Assembly: GCA_948468385.1 (NCBI GenBank)
Contig: CAOKHZ010000010.1
Coordinates: forward strand, 62,001-126,000
DNA length: 64,000 nucleotides
Source of the DNA: an uncultured Faecalicatena sp.
Lineage (GTDB): Bacteria > Bacillota > Clostridia > Lachnospirales > Lachnospiraceae
Reading direction: 5' to 3'
Below are positions 53,943-64,000 of the stretch, piece by piece. The first letter of the stretch is position 1; every line of letters starts with the position of its first letter. The notes under the pieces are model-generated. The model was given only the letters and a program-made list of their open reading frames with translations, ran no database searches and was not told the DNA's origin. The translations under genes and the position numbers were made by a program.

Positions 53943-55325
53943 TCAATACATCCAGCACAAGAAAAACAGCCCCATGTAAACCGCAGATATCGTGAAAACC
54001 ATCAAAGAGTACGGAAACACGTCTTTATATTTCACCCGAAAGGCTACAACAAGCGGCAACGCCCAAAACGGCTGCAGCAGGTTCGTCAACAAATCCCCAC
54101 AAGTAAACGCGTTTAGTACCCAGTTGACGGGAACTCCGAGCTGCAATGCCGCGGGCATGACGTAGGGCGCTTCCACCATGTATTGCGAGCCGCCCGACGG
54201 AACCAAAAAATTCAAAAGCGCCGTAAAAACAAAAATCAAAAAGGTAAACGTCCGCTTCGACGAGATGGATACAAACGCCTGTGTCAACACGCCCCCAAGC
54301 CCCGAATAGTTCAATATTCCAAACACGCCCGCATAAAACGGATATTGAAAAATTACCCCGCTCAAATTTTTGACCGCCCGACCAGTGGAAGCCAGTATGG
54401 AGTCCGGCGTGCCGTGAAATACCAGCGCCAGCATCAGGAACAGAAAATTGATGGCGTTAAAATTAAATTCTTCGGAAAAATTTCCAACCATTCTCACGCT
54501 ACAAATAACCAGGCCGATAATCCCCATCGACATCTGAAAAACTCGGGTATGATCCATCCGCCAGGCAAAAGAATGATTTTCCCCTAAAACGACATTTTCA
54601 TCCTCCGTCAAAAAATCTTTCTTTATTCGTGAAAGTTGTTCCTCGGAAATCGTATCCCTCAGTCTTGACATCAAAAACATAATCAAAACACAAACCGTAA
54701 CATAAATACACAAATTCATCAAGATAACCGGCATGGTCAGCATGGACTTTGTCAACGGGATCACTCCCACCACGTCCGCCATGAAATTATCCTTCGAAGC
54801 CATGACCAGGGGCGATCCCGCCGTCGGTCCCGCCTGAAGAATCAGCGCGCAATACCCTAGCGCCACCATAAAATGGTATGGCATTTTATTTCCTTTTTTA
54901 TCTTGCTCGACAATCAACGCCCTTCCCAGCAGCATGGCCGCCGCCATGGAAACCGCGAAGTGTAGATAACCAAGAAATCCAACGATCAGCCAATAAAAAA
55001 GCATAGCCTGCGTCGCACTTTTTGGTGCCTTGGCAATTTTTTGCATGAGCTTTTTGACGGGCTTGGAATCGCCCACTAAAAACCCGGTAAACATCAACAT
55101 GCAGATTTGGAAGCTGAACGTCAGCATGCTCCAAAAGCCGTCATACCAATTCTGCCCGATTGACATGGGCGTACTGTCCGTCAAAAATAATGCCATGACG
55201 ACGGATATGACCGTGATAAGCAACACCATCGAAAAGGAACTGGGAATATACTTATTACAAAATCCAGACAAGTTTTCCACAAACGATTGTTTTGTTTCTC
55301 TTGTTTTCACACTCACACACCCCAT
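53943..55325 (-). CDS. AtoE-type short-chain fatty acid transporter
   Basis: A 460-residue polytopic protein with about twelve segments. GFWSMLTFSFQICMLMFTGF, YLHFAVSMAAAMLLGRA and the late LVPSGGSQYMVEAPYVMPAA are typical of the TIGR00366/AtoE family, which imports or exports short-chain fatty acids. The exact start is uncertain: ATG 55325 lies before VKTRETKQSFVENLS, while ATG 55346 falls in a hairpin repeat. It is the fifth gene of the operon and lies 98 nt after the DASS gene, so it may move the acid product or substrate of the enzymes. Confidence 0.85.
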   Translation of the reverse strand: MGCVSVKTRETKQSFVENLSGFCNKYIPSSFSMVLLITVISVVMALFLTDSTPMSIGQNWYDGFWSMLTFSFQICMLMFTGFLVGDSKPVKKLMQKIAKAPKSATQAMLFYWLIVGFLGYLHFAVSMAAAMLLGRALIVEQDKKGNKMPYHFMVALGYCALILQAGPTAGSPLVMASKDNFMADVVGVIPLTKSMLTMPVILMNLCIYVTVCVLIMFLMSRLRDTISEEQLSRIKKDFLTEDENVVLGENHSFAWRMDHTRVFQMSMGIIGLVICSVRMVGNFSEEFNFNAINFLFLMLALVFHGTPDSILASTGRAVKNLSGVIFQYPFYAGVFGILNYSGLGGVLTQAFVSISSKRTFTFLIFVFTALLNFLVPSGGSQYMVEAPYVMPAALQLGVPVNWVLNAFTCGDLLTNLLQPFWALPLVVAFRVKYKDVFPYSLMVFTISAVYMGLFFLCWMY

Positions 55326-55329
55326 TCCA

Positions 55330-55400
55330 GAGTCTCGCCCTTTCATGCCCCGGCGCGCTTTACGCCGCAGGCATGAAACGCAGGGCTTTTTGACTTCAAA
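55330..55400. repeat. Diverged copy of the TCAAAAAGTCATGC hairpin family
   Basis: On the minus strand TCAAAAAGCCCTGCGTTTCA is followed by an inner CCTGCGGCG loop and GCATGAAAGGGCGAGACTC, giving a long imperfect stem. It lies between the two transporter genes and could lower expression of the last one. Confidence 0.55.
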
Positions 55401-55423
55401 AACCTTGTAACAACCACCAAGCG

Positions 55424-56848
55424 TCATCCCAATCCCGCCAACGAAACCAAAGGCATCATCAGGATTGCCGTGACCACCACCATAATGAGCGAGGGAACCC
55501 CGCCGCCCCGAAGTAAATCCGTCTCCGAATAGTAGCCGTCGCCGTAAGAATATAAGAAAATCGGTTCCGTATAAATCAACAGCATCGCCGCAGGCCCCCA
55601 AAACGCCGGAATCATGCAGAGCACGACCGGGTTCATGCCAACGAGGCCGGAAATCGTGTACATCAGCGGAATGAACAAGGATGCCACCGCCGCCGACGTC
55701 GGAATAAACGCCCGCAACACACATACCAATGCCGAAATAAGTATAAGTAACAAAAGTCCGTTCATGGCCGAGAACACTCCACCCGAAAAAACTGCCGTAA
55801 TGATATAGGCGAGTGCTCCGGTCGCCGTAAGCGCGCTGCTGACCGCGGGCGCCGTCCCCATCATCAGCACGATGTTAATGTTTGCCTCCGGTTTAAATTC
55901 TTCCCAGCTTAACACGTCGATACCAGGGAAAAACATCAAGGCCAGTCCAAGAATCGCCACGGTTCCCGTATTCAAAATCGAGATCCAGGTTCCGGCGAAC
56001 CATGCCGCAATCATCAGCACGATAATACACACCGCTTTCTTTTCCTTTGCCGTCAGGCTTCCCACCGACTTAAAATTAGACGATACGACTCCCATTTGCT
56101 CCTCTGTAAGCGGAGCCGCCTTGAAAGCGATTCCCAACCACACGCCGACCACGGCCAAGGCAATGATTCCGAAAGGTGCCGCAATGATCGTCCACTGCGC
56201 GAACGTGACCTCAGTGCCAAGCTGTGCCAGCAAATCCATGATAATGATATTTCCCGGCGTACCAGCAGGCGTGATGAACCCGCCAATTCCCGCCGCCACC
56301 GGGGCGGAAAGTCCCAAAGCCTTTCCCAACTTGTTCAGATCCGTCCCCTTTGCCTTCGAATCCGCGCCAAGCATGTCCAGCAATCCCTTGGAAAACGTAT
56401 AGAACATGATTGCCGTTGCCGTGGACGACATGAAGGAAGACACCAGTCCGGTGGCAAGGGTCATCAAAAGGATAATCGTACTCGTCTTTCCCTTTGACAA
56501 TTTCAGCATCAGGTTCGTGATACGCAACGGAATCGTGGAATTCTTCATTGCCGTGGTAATTCCAAACGAACCGAAAATAAAGAATACCGAAGACACGCTG
56601 AAATTGGCAATGGCGGTCTTAAAATCCATGACGCCCACAATCGGCATCAGGATGATGGCCAGACTTCCCACCAACGACATTGGCAGCACGTCAAGCATCC
56701 ACATTACGATTGCCGCCAGAAAAATCCCGATTGCCCCATACGCCTCGTGCGTCAGAGCGTTCTCGTCGCCCGGTATCAGGGCAAACACCACGACGAGGAC
56801 AACTGCCAGAACCGCCCCTATTATTTTTTTCTTGTCTATATTTTTCAT
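55424..56848 (-). CDS. DASS/SLC13-family organic anion transporter
   Basis: A 474-residue membrane protein with 11-13 segments. FMSSTATAIMFYTFSKGLLD and GFITPAGTPGNIIIMDLLAQLG are the paired SNT-like loops of divalent anion:Na+ symporters; a later RAFIPTSAAVASLFIPL is the matching second-half loop. The likely cargo is a carboxylic or sulfonic acid. GGAGGGGAGG lies just before ATG 56848, and the gap to the OB-fold gene is only 14 nt, so it belongs to the same operon. Confidence 0.9.
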   Translation of the reverse strand: MKNIDKKKIIGAVLAVVLVVVFALIPGDENALTHEAYGAIGIFLAAIVMWMLDVLPMSLVGSLAIILMPIVGVMDFKTAIANFSVSSVFFIFGSFGITTAMKNSTIPLRITNLMLKLSKGKTSTIILLMTLATGLVSSFMSSTATAIMFYTFSKGLLDMLGADSKAKGTDLNKLGKALGLSAPVAAGIGGFITPAGTPGNIIIMDLLAQLGTEVTFAQWTIIAAPFGIIALAVVGVWLGIAFKAAPLTEEQMGVVSSNFKSVGSLTAKEKKAVCIIVLMIAAWFAGTWISILNTGTVAILGLALMFFPGIDVLSWEEFKPEANINIVLMMGTAPAVSSALTATGALAYIITAVFSGGVFSAMNGLLLLILISALVCVLRAFIPTSAAVASLFIPLMYTISGLVGMNPVVLCMIPAFWGPAAMLLIYTEPIFLYSYGDGYYSETDLLRGGGVPSLIMVVVTAILMMPLVSLAGLG

Positions 56849-56862
56849 AATGCCTCCCCTCC

Positions 56863-57303
56863 TTATTCATCCACCACCACGAATTTGTAACCATACATCC
56901 ACGTGGAGTTGCTTTCTCTGTGAAGCTTCTTCGTCACCATTTCCACTCTCGCCCCCGGCACGATTTTTTCTATCGGGGTCTCGGTCACCTCCGCCAGCAC
57001 GCAAACCCCGTCATCCAATTGAATCACGGTCGAGACGCGGGGAATTCTCTCGCCATAACCAATGTGTACGCCCGTTGCCTGCCAGCAAATGTTCGCCTCC
57101 ACTATCATCCCCGTAAACGGATGGCGATACGGTTCCAAATCCCGGCTGTTACATTCCGCACACGCCGTCCTGCGCGGGAAATGAATCGCGCCGCAACTTT
57201 TACAGCGGGTTCCTTCTAATAAATAACGTCCCTTCCTCTCCCGCCAGCTTCTTGTCGCGCTGGCCGTTGTGTGACGGTAAATCTGTTCCTGAAATTGACT
57301 CAT
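56863..57303 (-). CDS. Zinc-ribbon OB-fold (DUF35) protein, PhlB-like
   Basis: A 146-residue protein. The N-terminal zinc ribbon has Cys34, Cys37, Cys48 and Cys51 (CKSCGAIHFPRRTACAEC). The rest is an OB fold (GVHIGYGERIPRVSTVIQLD, then VLAEVTETPIEKIVPGARVE). Such DUF35 proteins form the bridging subunit between a thiolase and an HMG-CoA-synthase-like partner in archaeal complexes and in PhlACB, and the size is as expected for PhlB. GAGAGGAAGG lies 8 nt before ATG 57303. It follows the thiolase gene by 33 nt. Confidence 0.88.
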   Translation of the reverse strand: MSQFQEQIYRHTTASATRSWRERKGRYLLEGTRCKSCGAIHFPRRTACAECNSRDLEPYRHPFTGMIVEANICWQATGVHIGYGERIPRVSTVIQLDDGVCVLAEVTETPIEKIVPGARVEMVTKKLHRESNSTWMYGYKFVVVDE

Positions 57304-57336
57304 GCCATACACCTTCCTCTCTATTATTATGAACTC

Positions 57337-58551
57337 TTATCGTTCGAACTCGTCGTTTGTCGTGACCGTGCAGGTCATGTGCGCGAACGCGCTTCCCGTG
57401 CATGCCGCCACCGCACACCTCGCGTCCTTTACCTGACGCTCTCCTGCTTCCCCTCGAAGCTGAATCACGTTTTCCACCACCTGGTTCAAGCCGTCCGCGC
57501 CCGACGCGTGCCCATAAGAAATCAAGCCGCCGCTCGTGTTTATCGGACACTTCCCGTCAATCGCGGCGTCGCCATTTAGGAAATGTCGGCCACCCTCTCC
57601 AAACTCCGTGATTCCAAGCGCGTCAATCTGCCAAAATGCCGCCCCCGTCAAATCATACACTTGGGCAAGGTCAATGTCCTTCGCCTCGATTTCCGCCATT
57701 TCATAAGCTTTCCTCGCCGCCGCAATCAAAGCCACCGACTGCCCGTAAGTCTCCTCCTTTACTAGCCCCTCCGGAAAGGCCGGACCCATGGGCGGCTCTC
57801 CGATTCTATGCGCGATATAATGCGAGGTCACTCCCAGACTGATTCCGTCAATATAAACCGGCTTATGAGGGTAGTTTTTTGCCTCGTCCGCCGCCACCAA
57901 AACGACCGCCGCACAGCCCTCGCCCATGATGGAAAAACAACTGCCACTGTGATTTAATGAGTCCCGATCCGGCATCGGCGTGCCATAAAGCGTCGCTTTC
58001 GGATTGCGCCGTCCATACCAGTGGCATTGATACGCCTGCGCGCCGTACGCCTCCCAGCCTTCATACCCATAATGCGACATGTAATAGTTACTCATCAATT
58101 CAAATCCGTCCCTATGCCGGAAGCCAAACACGTAATCGTATTCCGTGTCAAAGGAAATGTTGATGTTTTCCGTGTAACCGATATTGTCCCCCTCTTTGTC
58201 AAATCCCATGACCAACACTTTTTTATATTTCCCGGAGGCAATCATGTCCCATCCCGTATTCAAGGCGACAGAGCCGCCGGAACAATTCATTGAGTGAGGA
58301 AACACCGGTGCAGGCGCGATACCAAGCAAGTCGGCCACGCTGCCGCCAATCCCTCCCTGCTCGTTGACTCCCTCGCCGTGATAAGCAATGACCGCGCCGT
58401 CAATGTCCCTCGGTACCATCCCCGCGTCCTCGATTGCCTCATATGCCGCGTCACATACAATGTCCTTCCAGGTCTTCGTCGGGTAAATCCTTCCAGGCGC
58501 CGCCGTGGATCCAATTCCCACGATAGCCACTTTATGTTCGTATTTTGCCAT
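57337..58551 (-). CDS. SCP-x-type thiolase, PhlC-like catalytic subunit
   Basis: A 404-residue thiolase-fold protein. The nucleophile is Cys90 in FPHSMNCSGGSVAL. His58 (VIAYHGEG), His146 (FRHRDGF) and the C-terminal His348 in ISYGHASGADGLNQ complete a plausible active site. Thiolases of this kind work with a DUF35 protein. The arrangement with an inactive-looking ketosynthase and an OB protein is that of PhlACB, which moves acetyl groups to and from an aromatic carbon. GGAGGG lies before ATG 58551, 13 nt after the upstream gene. The acyl acceptor is unknown. Confidence 0.85.
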   Translation of the reverse strand: MAKYEHKVAIVGIGSTAAPGRIYPTKTWKDIVCDAAYEAIEDAGMVPRDIDGAVIAYHGEGVNEQGGIGGSVADLLGIAPAPVFPHSMNCSGGSVALNTGWDMIASGKYKKVLVMGFDKEGDNIGYTENINISFDTEYDYVFGFRHRDGFELMSNYYMSHYGYEGWEAYGAQAYQCHWYGRRNPKATLYGTPMPDRDSLNHSGSCFSIMGEGCAAVVLVAADEAKNYPHKPVYIDGISLGVTSHYIAHRIGEPPMGPAFPEGLVKEETYGQSVALIAAARKAYEMAEIEAKDIDLAQVYDLTGAAFWQIDALGITEFGEGGRHFLNGDAAIDGKCPINTSGGLISYGHASGADGLNQVVENVIQLRGEAGERQVKDARCAVAACTGSAFAHMTCTVTTNDEFER

Positions 58552-58564
58552 CTCTTTTCCCTCC

Positions 58565-59656
58565 TTACAGATATGCATTTAACGGATAATCATGACGGAG
58601 GTACTTGAACTCCATCTTCATCGCTTGTTTGTAATCCACCATCCGCTTGCGTAAAATATGTTCATCAACCGTTTTCACTTTTGCGCGCGCGTTTTCAATC
58701 TCCTCCGTCACGGTCAGCACGAACACGTCCGCGCCCGCTCCGTACCCGTACCCCGCGAGAAAGATTTTATCGTTCGCGCATGCCTGGTCGAACACCTTGG
58801 ACAATCCAATGAGCGGGGACGCCGAACCCGTGTCCCCCACGTAATCCGCAATAATTGAAGGCGCGTACTGACTCTTAGTAAAGCCAAGAAGCTTTGCCTG
58901 GTGACGGACAAATCCCGGTGTCGTCTGTTGGAACACGGCATATTTAAAATCAGATGGTTGATACCCCGTCTTTTTAAATAATGCTTCCGCCGCACCCAGC
59001 ATATGCGCATCAATCCCCACCTCGTTTTTGGCAGTCCCAAGCAGCATGCCCGTCCTCAAATAACGCTCGCCCTCCACGCGGAACCCATCGGACAAGTCGC
59101 TCGAATACGATTCCATCGCGTCCACCGTGGCCAGTACCTTGTCCGTGCCAAGCACCAACGCTCCGGCTCCCGCGCCGGCATAAGGCTCCACCAAATCGCC
59201 CGGCGCCGTGTGACGGTTAATCGTGTCCGCCCCGATTGCCAGTGCCCGGCTGGCCAGTCCGGCCTTCACCATTGCATATGCGTTCAACAAGGCGGCCATG
59301 CCAGACTTCATGGAAAACTGCAGGTCGCAACATTTCGTTCGATAAGGAAGTCCCAACGCCTCGAGCACCATCGTACTTGACGGTCTTGAATCATATGGGT
59401 TCGTACACGTCCCATAATATAACGCGTCCACGCCTCCCGCGTCAGGAACCCTGCGAAACGCCTCCCGCGCCGCCGCGATTGCCAGCGTGTTCGCGTCCTC
59501 GTCCGTGTCAAGGACTCCGCGTTCCAATACGCCTTGGGATTTTTTTATCGTATCGATAGGACTATTCATCCACAGTTCGACAATCTCCTCCACGGCCAGC
59601 CGGTGATACGGCAATTCCACGCCATAGCTTACAATTCCTACTTGCTTCTCATTCAT
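58565..59656 (-). CDS. HMG-CoA-synthase-like protein (PhlA-like) lacking the catalytic Cys and His
   Basis: A 363-residue KAS III/HMG-CoA synthase fold. The start (QVGIVSYGVELPYHRLAVEE) and GTCTNPYDSRPSST are like archaeal HMG-CoA synthase. Where that enzyme has the nucleophile in DLEFACKAG, this protein reads DLQFSMKSG (Met116). The FHQ histidine appears as FQQ in YAVFQQTTPGFVRHQA. So condensation chemistry is unlikely here and a structural role in a complex is more probable, as for PhlA. AAGGAGA precedes ATG 59656. First gene of the operon. Confidence 0.82.
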   Translation of the reverse strand: MNEKQVGIVSYGVELPYHRLAVEEIVELWMNSPIDTIKKSQGVLERGVLDTDEDANTLAIAAAREAFRRVPDAGGVDALYYGTCTNPYDSRPSSTMVLEALGLPYRTKCCDLQFSMKSGMAALLNAYAMVKAGLASRALAIGADTINRHTAPGDLVEPYAGAGAGALVLGTDKVLATVDAMESYSSDLSDGFRVEGERYLRTGMLLGTAKNEVGIDAHMLGAAEALFKKTGYQPSDFKYAVFQQTTPGFVRHQAKLLGFTKSQYAPSIIADYVGDTGSASPLIGLSKVFDQACANDKIFLAGYGYGAGADVFVLTVTEEIENARAKVKTVDEHILRKRMVDYKQAMKMEFKYLRHDYPLNAYL

Positions 59657-59776
59657 CACCCATGTCTCCTTCTTTTTTATTCCCGCAGGCAACGAGCCAA
59701 AGTCATGCTTTCACGCCTTTGTCCACCTTCAGCGGGTCATTTTCCTTGCAAAAGCACTTTTGTTCGGTATGCAAAA

Positions 59777-59829
59777 CGTTTTATGTATATCGTTTTATAT
59801 ATAGTACAATTTCACATCCCAAAAGTCAA
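59777..59829 (-). promoter_or_regulatory. Operon promoter with two overlapping IclR-type operator copies
   Basis: Minus strand TTGACT (59824-59829), 17-nt spacer, TACTAT (59801-59806). CGTTTTATATATAG (59791-59804) covers the -10 box and CGTTTTATGTATA (59777-59789) covers the start region. A protein bound there would block transcription. Confidence 0.65.
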
Positions 59830-59869
59830 TATCCAAGATTTTTTTCAGCCATTTGCCCCATTTTCCCTA

Positions 59870-59914
59870 TTGTATTTTGTGCAAATCGTGTTATACTGTT
59901 TTCTATATAAAACG
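59870..59914 (+). promoter_or_regulatory. Promoter of the IclR gene with an inverted operator copy
   Basis: TTGTAT (59870-59875), 16-nt spacer, TATACT (59892-59897). CTATATAAAACG (59903-59914), the reverse complement of the motif at 59791, lies on the likely start point, which suggests autoregulation. Confidence 0.6.
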
Positions 59915-59970
59915 AAAATTACATCAGAACATGGTATTCAAAAACATCACACGAAAGGCTGGGACTAAAA

Positions 59971-60753
59971 ATGAATTCAGACATAAAACTCGTTCCTGCG
60001 GCAGACAAGACATTGAAAATAATCGAACATATGGCAAAACATATAAAAGAGGGCTGCGGCGTGACGGAAATTGCCAACGCCTTACATTATAACAAGGGAA
60101 CCGTACACCCCATCCTGCAAACCTTGATTTCCAACGGCTGGGTGGAACGAGACCTTCCCGGGAAATATTATCTGACAAGCAAATTGTCCTACCTCGGCTC
60201 CCAAATCGAACTGGAAAACAAGTTGACCAGCGATTTTTTGCTGGTCGCAAACGAGATGGAACACGAATGTGGGGAATTAATCAACCTGCACTTATTAAAG
60301 AGCATGACGCACGTCGTCCTCGCGTCAAAAGTCGTGTCCTCCGTACACACCATACGTGTCGACTTCCCACTCGGGGCGACCATCCCCGTCATCGCGTCCA
60401 GTGCCGGGAAATGCCTGATATGCGAATTTGAAGACCTTTCCCTGCGCCGCATCTTTCAAGAATGCCACGCCCGTTACACGGACACGACCATCATGGAAGA
60501 AGATGCTTTTATAAAGGAAATCCATCAAGTCAAAGAACAAGGCTACGCCCTCAACAAAGGCGAATACGAGGACGGGGTGTGCAGTATCGCCGTCCCCGTC
60601 AGAAATGGCAACGGAAACATTACCGCCTCCATGAACATCGTCGTCCCCGAAACCAGATTCTCAAACGGACGGCAAAAAGAACTGCTGGCCTTGTTGCTGG
60701 AAAAGGCCGCATACCTTTCGTCACTAAGGGGATACCGGGCGAAAGAAGAATAA
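59971..60753 (+). CDS. IclR-family transcriptional regulator
   Basis: A 260-residue regulator. Residues 10-70 are the winged helix-turn-helix (AADKTLKIIEHMAKHIKEGC, then TVHPILQTLISNGWVERD). The rest is the IclR ligand-binding domain (IPVIASSAGKCLICEFEDL, VKEQGYALNKGEYEDGVCSI). Many IclR proteins sense aromatic or small organic acids. It is divergent from the five-gene operon, and motif copies on both promoters point to it as the repressor or activator. Ribosome site is weak (AAAGG). Confidence 0.92.
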   Translation: MNSDIKLVPAADKTLKIIEHMAKHIKEGCGVTEIANALHYNKGTVHPILQTLISNGWVERDLPGKYYLTSKLSYLGSQIELENKLTSDFLLVANEMEHECGELINLHLLKSMTHVVLASKVVSSVHTIRVDFPLGATIPVIASSAGKCLICEFEDLSLRRIFQECHARYTDTTIMEEDAFIKEIHQVKEQGYALNKGEYEDGVCSIAVPVRNGNGNITASMNIVVPETRFSNGRQKELLALLLEKAAYLSSLRGYRAKEE

Positions 60754-61736: not shown

Positions 61737-64000
61737 TCAGATCGGGTATGGGGACAATCCCGTTCTTCTAAAATAATCCTTGGCGTAATCCTGCGTTACC
61801 CGGAATACTTCTCTTCCGTCAATATTAATAACCAAGTCGCCTTGATTGCTCCTATTTCCTCCAGACAATCCCAACTCTGAAAGCACCTCAAGAACCGCTT
61901 CTTTATTCGCCTGCTTCATGGTTGACAGCGGGGAAACAATTTCCGTCTCTCTCTTATTATCCCCAAGCACTGCCATGAACTCGCGGTTCGGCGGCACCAC
62001 GGCACCGGCCGCCAACTTCGGAATCGGCGCAGGAGTCCAGCTGGCCAGTTCTGGATAAATGCTGTACGTGCTCATTCTGCTCATGTTCCTCGGAAGGATA
62101 CCCGACATGGCACCGCCGGCGACACCAGACACCGCACTTGCTTTTCCACTAAACTGATTGAATATGCTGAACAAGTCACTTATCCATCCGACAATCGTTT
62201 GCACTGCGGACACTATAGTTCCGACAATTCCATTCCAAATGTTTGACACCGTATTTGCCATTCCACTCCATGCGCCATTCCACAAAAATTGAATTGCACC
62301 AACAACGGATGCGATGATGGTCGATATCTGGTTTATTACACCAAATACGATATCTTTTATTCCGTTCCATACGTCCTTGACAGAACCCAAAAGACCTTTA
62401 ATTCCGTTCAACAATCCGGACATAAGGTACTGACCTTGCTCTTCCATTGCCGTTGATGGGCTATGGATGCCAAAGAAATCCTTGAAAGCTTGTAAAACAC
62501 GCTCCCATACCGTGCCCCAATCGGTTTCTGCAATCGCTTGCACAAGTCCCTCGAACAATCCATATATAAGCTGACTAGCCGCGATTATAATTTTACCTAT
62601 CAATTCTACCCAATTAACATTTACAAGAAAATCTATAATGTCTTTCCAAACTTCTGTCCAATCTATCACCGTTATCGCCTCAATGAGAGAATCCAAGATG
62701 CCAGATATAAGCTTTGTGGCACCTTCCGCAACGGTTTTCCCATCAAACTCCACAAAAAACATGTTTATCCCATTGGAAATATTGTCGCCCAAGGCTTTCC
62801 AGTCGAATGTATCAGCGAAAGCAATCGCCGTCTGAAACGCACCAGTAATCGCTCGACCAATCGTTGCACCAATCGTACCAAGGTTTATTGAACTAATGGC
62901 ACCATTCAACCCGTCACCTATTGCAACGCCTATTTCATCGTACTTTAAATTCGTCACGAATCCATAAAGCGTGTTCCAAAGTATCATGAAACGGTTTCCG
63001 AAAAAATTCCCCAGGTTATTCCAGTTTATCTCCCTTACGATTCCCGTAACTGCTTCCGCAAACTTTGACCCGAGATTTTTCCAGTCAATTCCCTCTATCA
63101 AGGAATTCAGGGTGTACGCAATCGAGTTTATTCCAGCCCCTATAGTTCTTCCCATCAAATTCCAGTCGATATTATCAACAAGACTATTAATCGTTCTGGT
63201 AAAAGCTTCTACGACATGCATAATTCTTGGGCCGACATTATCCCAATTAATAACATCGTAAATTTTTTGAAGTGCCTTGTTTAATCCTTCCGCAACATAA
63301 TCTCCGAGTCCTTCCCAGTCCTCCGCCTTAATCATGTCTCTTATCTTATTTGCAATGTCCAACATTCCATTCCCAATCGGAACAGTTTCAAACATGTCAG
63401 CGGGAGAAATGCCACCGCCGCCTCCACCACCCCCGCCGCCGGCGGAATCCGAAGACAAATTGTTCAGCTTATCCAGGGATGACAGTTGCTTATTCGCATC
63501 CTTGGCGGCAGACGCGGTATCACCCAAGCTTTCGGCATAATTCTCCTGCACCGCCGTCGCCTTGGTGAACGTCTTTTGTCCAGTCAGCGCGGCGATGAGC
63601 ATCCCGACATATGTCGCCGCCTTGGAGAGCATGTTGATAAACGACGTGAGCATCGGAGCCACCGCGGTAAGTATCGGGGCGAACGCTGTGGCCAGGCTGT
63701 TCTTAAGCTGCGTCAACGCGGATTTCATCGAGGACAGCGCGGCGTTGACCGGGGTTGAATACCTTGCGAGGTTTCCGATTCCCTCCCGTATTCCGGACAT
63801 CATGGCGTTAAATGCCTTGCTAATCTGGTTGAATATCAGGAGCGAAAGGGCGAGGCCTTTGAACCGATCCCCCAGCGTGGAAAGTAGACCGCCAGACTTT
63901 TTAGTGAATCCACCTATTTTTGTAAATATATTCTTTACCGCGCTCCCGAGTGTCTTGATGGAACCTTTCACGATAGTCTTTACTGTTTCCTTGGCTGACT
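61737..64000 (-). CDS. Phage tail tape-measure protein, 5' end beyond the window
   Basis: The frame is open to the right edge, giving 754 residues of C-terminal sequence. Long hydrophobic and amphipathic stretches (FKGLALSLLIFNQISKAFNA, ITSFINMLS-like), a run of ten Gly after SSDSA, about nine repeats with DW at 20-40 residue spacing (IDWKNLG, INWNNLG, IDWNLMG) and the end LVINIDGREVFRVTQDYAKD are typical of Gram-positive siphophage tape measures. No distal tail, fibre or lysis genes follow on the minus strand, which is unusual and suggests a truncated prophage. Confidence 0.85.
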   Translation of the reverse strand, partial: SAKETVKTIVKGSIKTLGSAVKNIFTKIGGFTKKSGGLLSTLGDRFKGLALSLLIFNQISKAFNAMMSGIREGIGNLARYSTPVNAALSSMKSALTQLKNSLATAFAPILTAVAPMLTSFINMLSKAATYVGMLIAALTGQKTFTKATAVQENYAESLGDTASAAKDANKQLSSLDKLNNLSSDSAGGGGGGGGGGISPADMFETVPIGNGMLDIANKIRDMIKAEDWEGLGDYVAEGLNKALQKIYDVINWDNVGPRIMHVVEAFTRTINSLVDNIDWNLMGRTIGAGINSIAYTLNSLIEGIDWKNLGSKFAEAVTGIVREINWNNLGNFFGNRFMILWNTLYGFVTNLKYDEIGVAIGDGLNGAISSINLGTIGATIGRAITGAFQTAIAFADTFDWKALGDNISNGINMFFVEFDGKTVAEGATKLISGILDSLIEAITVIDWTEVWKDIIDFLVNVNWVELIGKIIIAASQLIYGLFEGLVQAIAETDWGTVWERVLQAFKDFFGIHSPSTAMEEQGQYLMSGLLNGIKGLLGSVKDVWNGIKDIVFGVINQISTIIASVVGAIQFLWNGAWSGMANTVSNIWNGIVGTIVSAVQTIVGWISDLFSIFNQFSGKASAVSGVAGGAMSGILPRNMSRMSTYSIYPELASWTPAPIPKLAAGAVVPPNREFMAVLGDNKRETEIVSPLSTMKQANKEAVLEVLSELGLSGGNRSNQGDLVINIDGREVFRVTQDYAKDYFRRTGLSPYPI

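What the first reader, a model, noticed from the sequence alone, without database searches (positions are those of the whole stretch)
53943..60753. IclR-controlled operon with a PhlACB-like acyltransferase module and two organic-acid transporters
Seen: genes for an HMG-CoA-synthase fold (363 aa), an SCP-x thiolase (404 aa), a DUF35 zinc-ribbon OB protein (146 aa), a DASS transporter and an AtoE transporter, in tight order and divergent from iclR. Known: the same three-protein set, in the order A-C-B and similar sizes, forms the Pseudomonas PhlACB C-acetyltransferase (diacetylphloroglucinol pathway), and a related trio makes HMG-CoA in archaea. By eye the synthase-like subunit has Met for the nucleophilic Cys and Gln for the catalytic His, while the thiolase keeps Cys90 and several His. 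Inference: a PhlACB-like C-C acyl transfer or cleavage enzyme in an anaerobic gut-type bacterium, with transporters for the acid substrate and short-chain acid product.
Basis: partly seen in the sequence, partly recalled or inferred. Interest (0 to 1): 0.85.

Follow-up and report, generated by a model that had tools for sequence, protein, structure and literature searches.

The report
Gut-bacterium cousin of phloroglucinol acyltransferase
A bacterium of a gut-associated family carries a rare regulated gene set for a three-part enzyme that closely resembles the one soil Pseudomonas use to move acetyl groups onto phenol rings, but here it sits beside transporters instead of antibiotic genes, so it probably remodels acylated plant phenols or similar compounds.

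Summary
Five same-strand genes (PhlA-, PhlC-, PhlB-like, DASS, AtoE) lie divergent from iclR. Each subunit's best match among solved structures is the PhlACB C-acyltransferase (E 5e-108, 4e-88, 9e-37). The synthase-like subunit has Met116, Gln243 and Cys84 where true HMG-CoA synthases have Cys, His and Glu; Pseudomonas PhlA lacks all three too, so this is the family's rule. The thiolase-like subunit keeps 9 of 10 PhlC active-site residues. Eight DAPG-type loci keep 10, two NRPS-linked relatives 5, 37 other thiolases 0-2. The one loss, lid Trp211, is dispensable (PMC6392133). The operon is conserved in one sister species under purifying selection (phlC dN/dS 0.010), absent from the 10 other genus genomes searched, and forms a separate lineage beside DAPG and tetramic-acid types. 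No type III polyketide synthase, BKACE or cyclase was found in its genome, so neither known phloroglucinol synthesis nor ring breakdown. Best reading: inducible, CoA-independent C-acyl transfer or removal on an imported acyl-polyphenol or similar 1,3-diketone. Complex identity is well supported; substrate, direction and transporter roles are inferred.

The parts
58565..59656 (-). PhlA-like subunit (pseudo-HMG-CoA-synthase fold, 363 aa; Cys84, Met116, Gln243 in place of catalytic Glu, Cys, His)
   Evidence: phmmer to 9skh_A E 5e-108 and 5m3k_A 1.4e-105; active-site alignment; own lineage in the PhlA tree
57337..58551 (-). PhlC-like catalytic subunit (SCP-x-type thiolase fold, 404 aa; Cys90 nucleophile)
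   Evidence: phmmer to 9skh_I E 4.3e-88; 9 of 10 PhlC active-site residues kept; dN/dS 0.010 against the sister species
56863..57303 (-). PhlB-like linker subunit (zinc ribbon with four Cys plus OB fold, 146 aa, with the PhlB-type N-terminal tail)
   Evidence: phmmer to 9skh_E E 9e-37; Pfam PF12172 above and PF01796 slightly below its cut-off; tail 15/28 and rest 53/117 identical to C. sphagni PhlB, cavity loop 4/14
55424..56848 (-). DASS-family anion symporter (474 aa); both SNT motifs of VcINDY altered (SST, TSA)
   Evidence: Pfam PF00939 E 2.8e-39; TIGR00785 178.3 bits, below its cut-off of 198.6; alignment to VcINDY 4f35
53943..55346 (-). AtoE-family short-chain fatty acid transporter (467 aa from the likely ATG)
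   Evidence: Pfam PF02667 E 8e-76; start; the eight other homologues compared outside the genus pair are 25-30% identical
59971..60753 (+). IclR-family regulator, divergent
   Evidence: PF01614 and PF09339; best NCBIfam match PcaR/PcaU/PobR subfamily, 123 bits, below its cut-off of 284.75
59657..59970 (.). divergent promoter region: sigma-70-like phlA promoter 59829-59801 (-) and two copies of TATATAAAACGA at 59790-59801 (-) and 59904-59915 (+), proposed IclR operators
   Evidence: both copies are present in the sister species, one of them with one base changed; motif picked by eye

Best explanation
The three genes encode a PhlACB-type heteromeric C-acyltransferase. Expected from the family (not tested here): PhlA- and PhlC-like dimers held together by the PhlB-like zinc-ribbon/OB subunit, with all chemistry in the PhlC-like subunit: Cys90 takes an acyl group from a C-acylated phloroglucinol/resorcinol-like ring (or a similar enolised 1,3-dione) held by His58, Tyr126 and His348, and passes it to another acceptor without coenzyme A. 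Because no known enzyme to make or open a phloroglucinol ring was found in the genome, and the operon has an IclR regulator and two acid transporters rather than polyketide or peptide synthetase genes, I infer an inducible system for remodelling or deacylating an exogenous acyl-polyphenol or related 1,3-diketone, with AtoE moving the released short-chain acid and DASS an anionic substrate or product. Shown: gene content, conservation, family, active-site residues. Inferred: substrate class, direction, transporter roles.
For: Best PDB hits of all three subunits are PhlACB chains, in the same A-C-B order. Of the ten PhlC residues that were selected for mutagenesis, 9 are kept, including His56, Tyr124 and His347 that bind the phloroglucinol hydroxyls in the crystal; 8 of 8 DAPG-type loci have 10, NRPS-linked Priestia and L. 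plantarum 5 each, 37 other thiolases 0-2. The missing Trp211 is non-essential: W211A gives more C-acetylation, 66% versus 44%, though its natural MAPG activity is lower, 16 versus 44 mU/mg (PMC6392133 section 8). PhlA-like loss of Glu/Cys/His as in PhlA. Operon unit conserved in a second species, phlC dN/dS 0.010. No type III PKS in 12 of 12 genus genomes; no BKACE and no PF04199 cyclase in G000 or G001. A PF18089 DAPG/phloretin-hydrolase-family protein is present in both operon-bearing genomes and in 1 of the 10 others.
Against: No biochemical data. The window lineage branches outside the DAPG clade in both trees (weak in the PhlA tree, and both trees carry long-branch warnings), so the shared pocket may be ancestral and the substrate may have shifted. 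Gly385 is Ser, Trp211 is lost and the PhlB cavity loop matches only 4 of 14. The known ATases are not good hydrolases: enzyme-catalysed deformylation gave about 2% in 18 h and formylation is put at about 900 times faster (PMC12955522 passage, cut short). The DASS/AtoE homologues do not fix a substrate: DASS relatives sit near URO-D genes in 2 of 3 genomes, AtoE relatives in varied settings. The PF18089 protein is a distant family member on another contig beside PF07090 and SDR genes, and the two carriers are close relatives. G001 is only 74% complete and G000 94%, so absences are not certain.
Confidence: 0.55

Rival explanations
1. The complex is a PhlACB-type C-acyltransferase, but its substrate is an acyclic beta-diketone or beta-keto acid of fermentation (for example a triacetate- or acylpyruvate-like acid), imported by DASS, with acetate, butyrate or acetoacetate leaving through AtoE.
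For: Two organic-acid transporters and an IclR regulator fit an acid substrate better than a neutral phenol. An AtoE-family transporter is embedded in an apparently complete phloroglucinol/triacetate degradation cluster of another genome of the order (judged by family content, the reductase by the recalled identity of 5g4k).
Against: The ring-binding residues are kept, whereas the NRPS-linked type lost His56 and Tyr124. The embedded AtoE is only 25% identical to the window's. No BKACE was found in the genome and no CoA transferase is in the operon.
Confidence: 0.25
2. A biosynthetic C-acetyltransferase that finishes a secondary metabolite, as in reutericyclin-type tetramic acids or DAPG.
For: The close relatives with an assigned role are biosynthetic: PhlACB, and RtcABC/MucABC (PMC8210680 passages). 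NRPS-linked homologues exist on Priestia and L. plantarum plasmids. A phosphopantetheinyl transferase gene lies 1.4 kb beyond the operon.
Against: No NRPS/PKS gene among the neighbours read here (NRPS genes were not searched genome-wide), no type III PKS in the genome. Of the five fingerprint positions changed in the NRPS-linked type, four are kept here. The PPTase gene is separated from the operon by an unrelated AAA/DUF4143 gene.
Confidence: 0.08
3. An ordinary acetyl-CoA thiolase/HMG-CoA synthase complex or a CoA-dependent beta-oxidation thiolase.
For: NCBIfam model NF003274 (hydroxymethylglutaryl-CoA synthase) scores 339 bits, above its cut-off of 244; the archaeal thiolase/HMGCS complex 6esq is a more distant match.
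Against: Glu, Cys and His of the synthase are all replaced. The thiolase-like subunit matches PhlC (E 4e-88) far better than the archaeal thiolase (E 4e-25). Only 0-2 of the 10 PhlC residues occur in 37 other thiolases, against 9 here. P. protegens ATase gave no conversion with acetyl-CoA (PMC6686624 passage).
Confidence: 0.07

Closest known systems
PhlACB (2,4-diacetylphloroglucinol ATase) of Pseudomonas protegens and Chromobacterium sphagni (PDB 5m3k/5mg5, 9skh/9skm)
   Same: Three subunits in the order A-C-B, 48% (A) and 42% (C) identity, PhlA without Glu/Cys/His of HMGS, 9 of 10 PhlC pocket residues, PhlB four-Cys ribbon and N-terminal tail.
   Different: IclR, DASS and AtoE as neighbours, no phlD-, phlE-, phlF- or phlG-like gene among the neighbours read; Met at the PhlA Gly115 position; Trp211 lid lost; Gly385 to Ser; separate lineage.
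RtcABC/MucABC tetramic-acid acetyltransferase type (NRPS-linked; relatives on L. plantarum pLP315 and a Priestia megaterium plasmid; PDB 9vbo/9vbt is closest to the L. plantarum proteins)
   Same: Same three-subunit architecture and order, catalytic Cys and His kept.
   Different: Linked to NRPS/PKS genes; His56, Tyr124, Ser349, Asp352 replaced; window subunits only 31-44% (A) and 35% (C) identical.
Archaeal acetoacetyl-CoA thiolase/HMG-CoA synthase/DUF35 complex (PDB 6esq)
   Same: Same folds and a three-part complex.
   Different: CoA-dependent (recalled and PMC6392133 passage); archaeal synthases keep Glu/Cys/His (2 of 2 aligned); the DUF35 match starts after the tail; pocket fingerprint absent in the archaeal thiolases aligned.
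Phloroglucinol degradation cluster (PGR-DPGC-TfD-TAL; Clostridium scatologenes, PMC10470551, passages)
   Same: Anaerobic phloroglucinol-related chemistry; an apparently complete cluster with an embedded AtoE-family gene in another genome of the order (L134).
   Different: None of its PF05853 or PF04199 enzymes was found in the window's genome.

Membership tests
PhlACB-type C-acyltransferase complex | A, C and B subunit genes adjacent in this order, each most similar to the PhlACB chains | tested here: met
   PhlACB chains are the best PDB hits of all three
PhlACB-type C-acyltransferase complex | PhlA-like subunit lacks the HMGS catalytic Glu and Cys | tested here: met
   Cys84 and Met116 (PhlA: Cys83, Gly115); PMC6392133 passages
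PhlACB-type C-acyltransferase complex | PhlC pocket residues His56, Asn87, Cys88, His144, Tyr298, His347, Ser349, Asp352 (variants nearly or fully inactive) and Tyr124 (ring contact, no variant in the table); Trp211 dispensable | tested here: met
   all nine kept, Trp211 lost (mutagenesis table)
PhlACB-type C-acyltransferase complex | PhlB four-Cys ribbon and N-terminal tail that binds PhlA and PhlC | tested here: met
   alignment: four Cys aligned, tail 15/28; cavity loop 74-87 poorly conserved (4/14)
PhlACB-type C-acyltransferase complex | CoA-independent C-acyl transfer (MAPG disproportionation) | not testable with these tools
   needs purified complex
PhlACB-type C-acyltransferase complex | Phl(A2C2)2B4 heterododecamer | not testable with these tools
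   structure prediction switched off
DAPG biosynthesis cluster (phl) | type III PKS PhlD in the genome | tested here: not met
   PF00195: 0 of 12 genus genomes, own included (rings in 5 of 14 control genomes)
Tetramic-acid (reutericyclin-type) acetyltransferase | NRPS/PKS genes beside the trio | tested here: not met
   neighbours are DASS, AtoE, iclR, AAA/DUF4143 and others
HMG-CoA synthase | catalytic Glu, Cys and His | tested here: not met
   all three replaced, although NF003274 scores above its cut-off
Anaerobic phloroglucinol degradation cluster | BKACE-family TAL and PF04199-family DPGC in the genome | tested here: not met
   no match in G000 (94% complete) or G001 (74% complete)

The most novel reading that the evidence does not exclude
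A third branch of the PhlACB family that works in catabolism: an inducible, CoA-independent Friedel-Crafts-type C-acyl cleavage/transfer enzyme with dedicated acid transporters, by which a gut-family anaerobe deacylates or trans-acylates dietary or microbial acyl-polyphenols, as opposed to making an antibiotic.
Probability: 0.35. Interest if true: 0.7.

Novelty: new variant of a known kind. Interest (0 to 1): 0.5.

Why it matters
The close relatives of this enzyme with an assigned role that I could name are biosynthetic (an antibiotic or a tetramic acid) and come from pseudomonads, Chromobacterium or lactic-acid-type bacteria. A conserved, tightly constrained version in a Lachnospiraceae genome, without any known precursor synthesis but with a regulator and transporters, would extend CoA-free C-C acyl transfer to anaerobic metabolism of plant acylphenols. 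It would also give biocatalysis a naturally Trp-lid-less ATase that branches apart from the Pseudomonas and Chromobacterium ones. The pocket fingerprint makes a clear prediction that one expression experiment can test.

Tried and rejected
Tried without result: a scan of viral contigs and of phage records for PhlA gave nothing; PADLOC gave nothing useful; literature searches (listings only, except the papers whose passages are named) listed no paper that I recognised as on a PhlACB homologue in Lachnospiraceae or another gut anaerobe. The Angew paper's BLAST set of over 100 ATases (PMC12955522) was not seen and may hold this one.

Considered and rejected: true HMG-CoA synthase (catalytic residues replaced), DAPG cluster (no type III PKS found), NRPS-linked acetyltransferase (no NRPS/PKS gene among the genes read around it, pocket differs), part of a known phloroglucinol degradation pathway (no BKACE or cyclase found). 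I tried to fix the transporter substrates by the neighbours of their homologues: DASS homologues (35-39%) lie by URO-D genes in 2 of 3 genomes; of the 7 AtoE homologues outside the genus pair, one lies by a CoA-transferase-like gene and one in a nucleobase-type cluster (both by eye), and the other 5 showed no telling neighbour; one more AtoE-family gene lies inside a phloroglucinol-type cluster but is only 25% identical. I therefore do not assign their substrates. A foreign origin is not shown: operon GC is 50.9% against 49.7% for the window, and in the sister species the operon has the same PPTase gene and MATE-like gene (by eye) on its AtoE side.

Rows dropped: 6 of 46 thiolase hits (ORF of 430 aa or more: L031, L034, L035, L054, L058, L059) and the truncated G744 PhlC; two loci appeared under two names (L011, L062) and are counted once; two of the eight DAPG-type PhlC rows are identical in sequence. 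Fetched but not read: L091, L092. The operator motif was picked by eye before the chance test (2 found, 0.37 expected, 5 of 100 shuffles as high).


Full report
Observation. One search lists the genes as described; the AtoE ORF is best started at 55346. Pfam and NCBIfam confirm the domains: ACP_syn_III/HMGS fold, SCP-x-type thiolase, zf-ChsH2 plus OB fold (the OB model just below its cut-off), DASS, SCFA_trans (AtoE) and IclR. Gaps between the five minus-strand genes are 13, 33, 14 and 77 nt.

Family. In the PDB sequence set, the best hits of the three subunits are the A, C and B chains of PhlACB from Chromobacterium sphagni (9skh) and Pseudomonas protegens (5m3k): E 5e-108, 4.3e-88 and 9e-37. 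Next come 9vbo (E 1.4e-53 to 1.5e-23 for A, C and B), which is closest to the NRPS-linked L. plantarum proteins, and the archaeal thiolase/HMGCS complex 6esq, which is much weaker for the thiolase-like subunit (E 3.8e-25). Identities to P. protegens are 48.1% (A) and 42.1% (C).

Active sites. The PhlA-like subunit has Cys84, Met116 and Gln243 where HMG-CoA synthases have Glu, Cys and His. PhlA itself has Cys83, Gly115 and Gln242, and the authors of the structure note the missing Glu and Cys (PMC6392133, passages). The PhlC-like subunit was scored at the ten residues that were selected for mutagenesis in PMC6392133 (section 8 read; Tyr124 has no variant in its table). In 8 of 8 DAPG-type loci all ten are kept; window and sister species have 9; the NRPS-linked Priestia and L. 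plantarum proteins have 5; 37 other thiolases (archaeal HMGS-linked and four clostridial-type) have 0 to 2 (6 of 46 hits dropped for ORF length). The kept set includes His56, Tyr124 and His347, which hold the phloroglucinol hydroxyls in the MAPG-soaked crystal. The lost one, Trp211, is a lid whose change to Ala in P. protegens raised the C-acetylation product from 44 to 66%, while the natural MAPG activity fell from 44 to 16 mU/mg. The PhlB-like subunit has the four Cys and the N-terminal tail (15 of 28 identical to C. sphagni) that ties A to C in the crystal, but the cavity loop is poorly conserved, 4 of 14.

Distribution and selection. Among 12 genus genomes, only the window's (G000) and G001 have the PhlA-like gene at E 1e-20 (2 of 145 relatives). 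The draws from the order, class and phylum gave 1 of 392 and 1 of 391 (own only) and 22 of 398 (own, one distant homologue in G744 at E 1e-99, the rest at 5.4e-60 or weaker) at E 1e-25. In G001 the six genes stand in the same order, with the same PPTase gene and MATE-like gene beyond atoE. dN/dS values are 0.010 (phlC), 0.040 (phlB), 0.055 (dass), 0.083 (phlA), 0.093 (iclR) and 0.108 (atoE): all six genes are under purifying selection.

Phylogeny. The window pair is its own lineage in both trees (100/100 and 100/99). In the PhlC tree it falls inside the PhlC-type clade (100/100), outside the DAPG and NRPS-linked types together (86/80). In the PhlA tree its position relative to HMGS-type rows is weak (66/51). 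Both trees are midpoint-rooted and carry long-branch warnings. If the PhlC tree is right, the phloroglucinol-type pocket would be ancestral and lost in the tetramic-acid type.

Genome context. PF00195 type III PKS: 0 of 12 genus genomes. PF05853 (TAL family) and PF04199 (DPGC family): none in G000 or G001, although 1 and 6 of the 12 genomes have one. PF18089 (DAPG/phloretin hydrolase family): present in G000, G001 and G002, 3 of 12 (0 of 14 controls); the G000 protein is a distant member (66 bits; PDB hits 5xe5, 5xey and 3hwp at E 1.7e-11 to 4.4e-9) beside PF07090 and SDR genes, and the two carriers are close relatives, so this is weak support. G001 is only 74% complete.

Regulation. A sigma-70-like site (TTGACT-17-TACTAT, 59829-59801, minus strand) fits phlA, although such sites are expected by chance (1 found, 1.3 expected). 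The 12-mer TATATAAAACGA occurs at 59790-59801 (-) and 59904-59915 (+), both in the intergenic region and nowhere else in the window at up to one mismatch. The second copy is identical in G001, the first differs by one base. I propose these as IclR operators; the motif was chosen by eye.

Transporters. The DASS protein scores 178.3 bits against a 198.6 cut-off and has SST and TSA where VcINDY has its two SNT motifs (the role of SNT is recalled). Its homologues in 3 of 298 other family genomes (E 1e-60) are 35-39% identical and lie by URO-D-family genes in two. The 7 AtoE homologues outside the genus pair among 295 genomes (E 1e-50) are 27-30% identical in varied contexts. In G126 another AtoE-family gene lies inside a cluster of a close relative of the SDR 5g4k (E 1.3e-107; phloroglucinol reductase by recall), a PF04199 cyclase, 3HCDH, BKACE, thiolase and CoA transferase, but it is not specially close to the window's (25%).

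Mechanism proposed. Shown: gene set, conservation, catalytic residues. From the family: acyl-Cys intermediate in PhlC, no CoA (P. protegens ATase did not use acetyl-CoA; PMC6686624 passage), a complex held by PhlB. Inferred: a ring-type acyl donor or acceptor (about 0.6), catabolic direction (about 0.5), AtoE for released acids and DASS for an anionic substrate or product (weak).

Novelty. The family is known; the genetic setting, the taxon and the lineage were not met in the sources I searched (listings and passages). I therefore call it a new variant of a known kind.

Noticed in passing
loci L019-L066 (mostly archaeal HMGS loci): 25 of 34 HMGS-linked thiolase-like subunits aligned (mostly Thermoplasmata, Methanomassiliicoccales, Archaeoglobus relatives) have Gly or Asp at the nucleophilic Cys column (3 of them have a Cys two residues away), and 17 of 34 lack the C-terminal catalytic His (GDP, GQP or GYP for GHP): a mirror image of PhlACB, with the thiolase and not the synthase as the apparent pseudoenzyme.
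   Followed up: partly
L088, L089, L090, L062: A-C-B-like trios whose HMGS-like subunit also lacks Glu and Cys, in or beside beta-oxidation-type genes (hydroxyacyl-CoA dehydrogenase-, enoyl-CoA hydratase- and acyl-CoA dehydrogenase-like by eye) of distant Firmicutes genomes including Carboxydothermus islandicus; a B gene was read in three of the four.
   Followed up: partly
L087 (G744:C116): A further PhlA-like (39% to the window) and PhlC-like pair behind an amino-acid-kinase-family gene, an ornithine carbamoyltransferase gene and a gene without Pfam match; the contig ends inside the PhlC-like gene.
   Followed up: partly
L134 (G126:C78, 9392-18076): Apparently complete phloroglucinol-degradation cluster (relative of SDR 5g4k, cyclase, 3HCDH, BKACE, thiolase, CoA transferase) with an AtoE-family transporter inside it.
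   Followed up: partly
L127 (G006:C1:620000-638000): An AtoE-family gene in a cluster with a PF04199 cyclase and, by eye, FdrA/YlbE-like proteins, a uracil-type permease and carbamate kinase.
   Followed up: no
L108:9027-9857 (G000:C29), also L109, L110: PF18089 DAPG/phloretin-hydrolase-family protein in 3 of 12 genus genomes, next to a PF07090 GATase1-like gene in G000 and, by matching sequence, in G001.
   Followed up: partly
61737-63971: A 744-aa repetitive ORF with a poly-glycine stretch that by eye looks like a phage tail tape-measure protein, hinting at a prophage at the right end of the window; no Pfam model reached its cut-off.
   Followed up: no
57337-58551 versus 58565-59656: Between the two species PhlC is 99% identical but PhlA only 90%, although they are adjacent genes of one complex; the difference is at amino-acid level (dN 0.004 versus 0.053).
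   Followed up: partly
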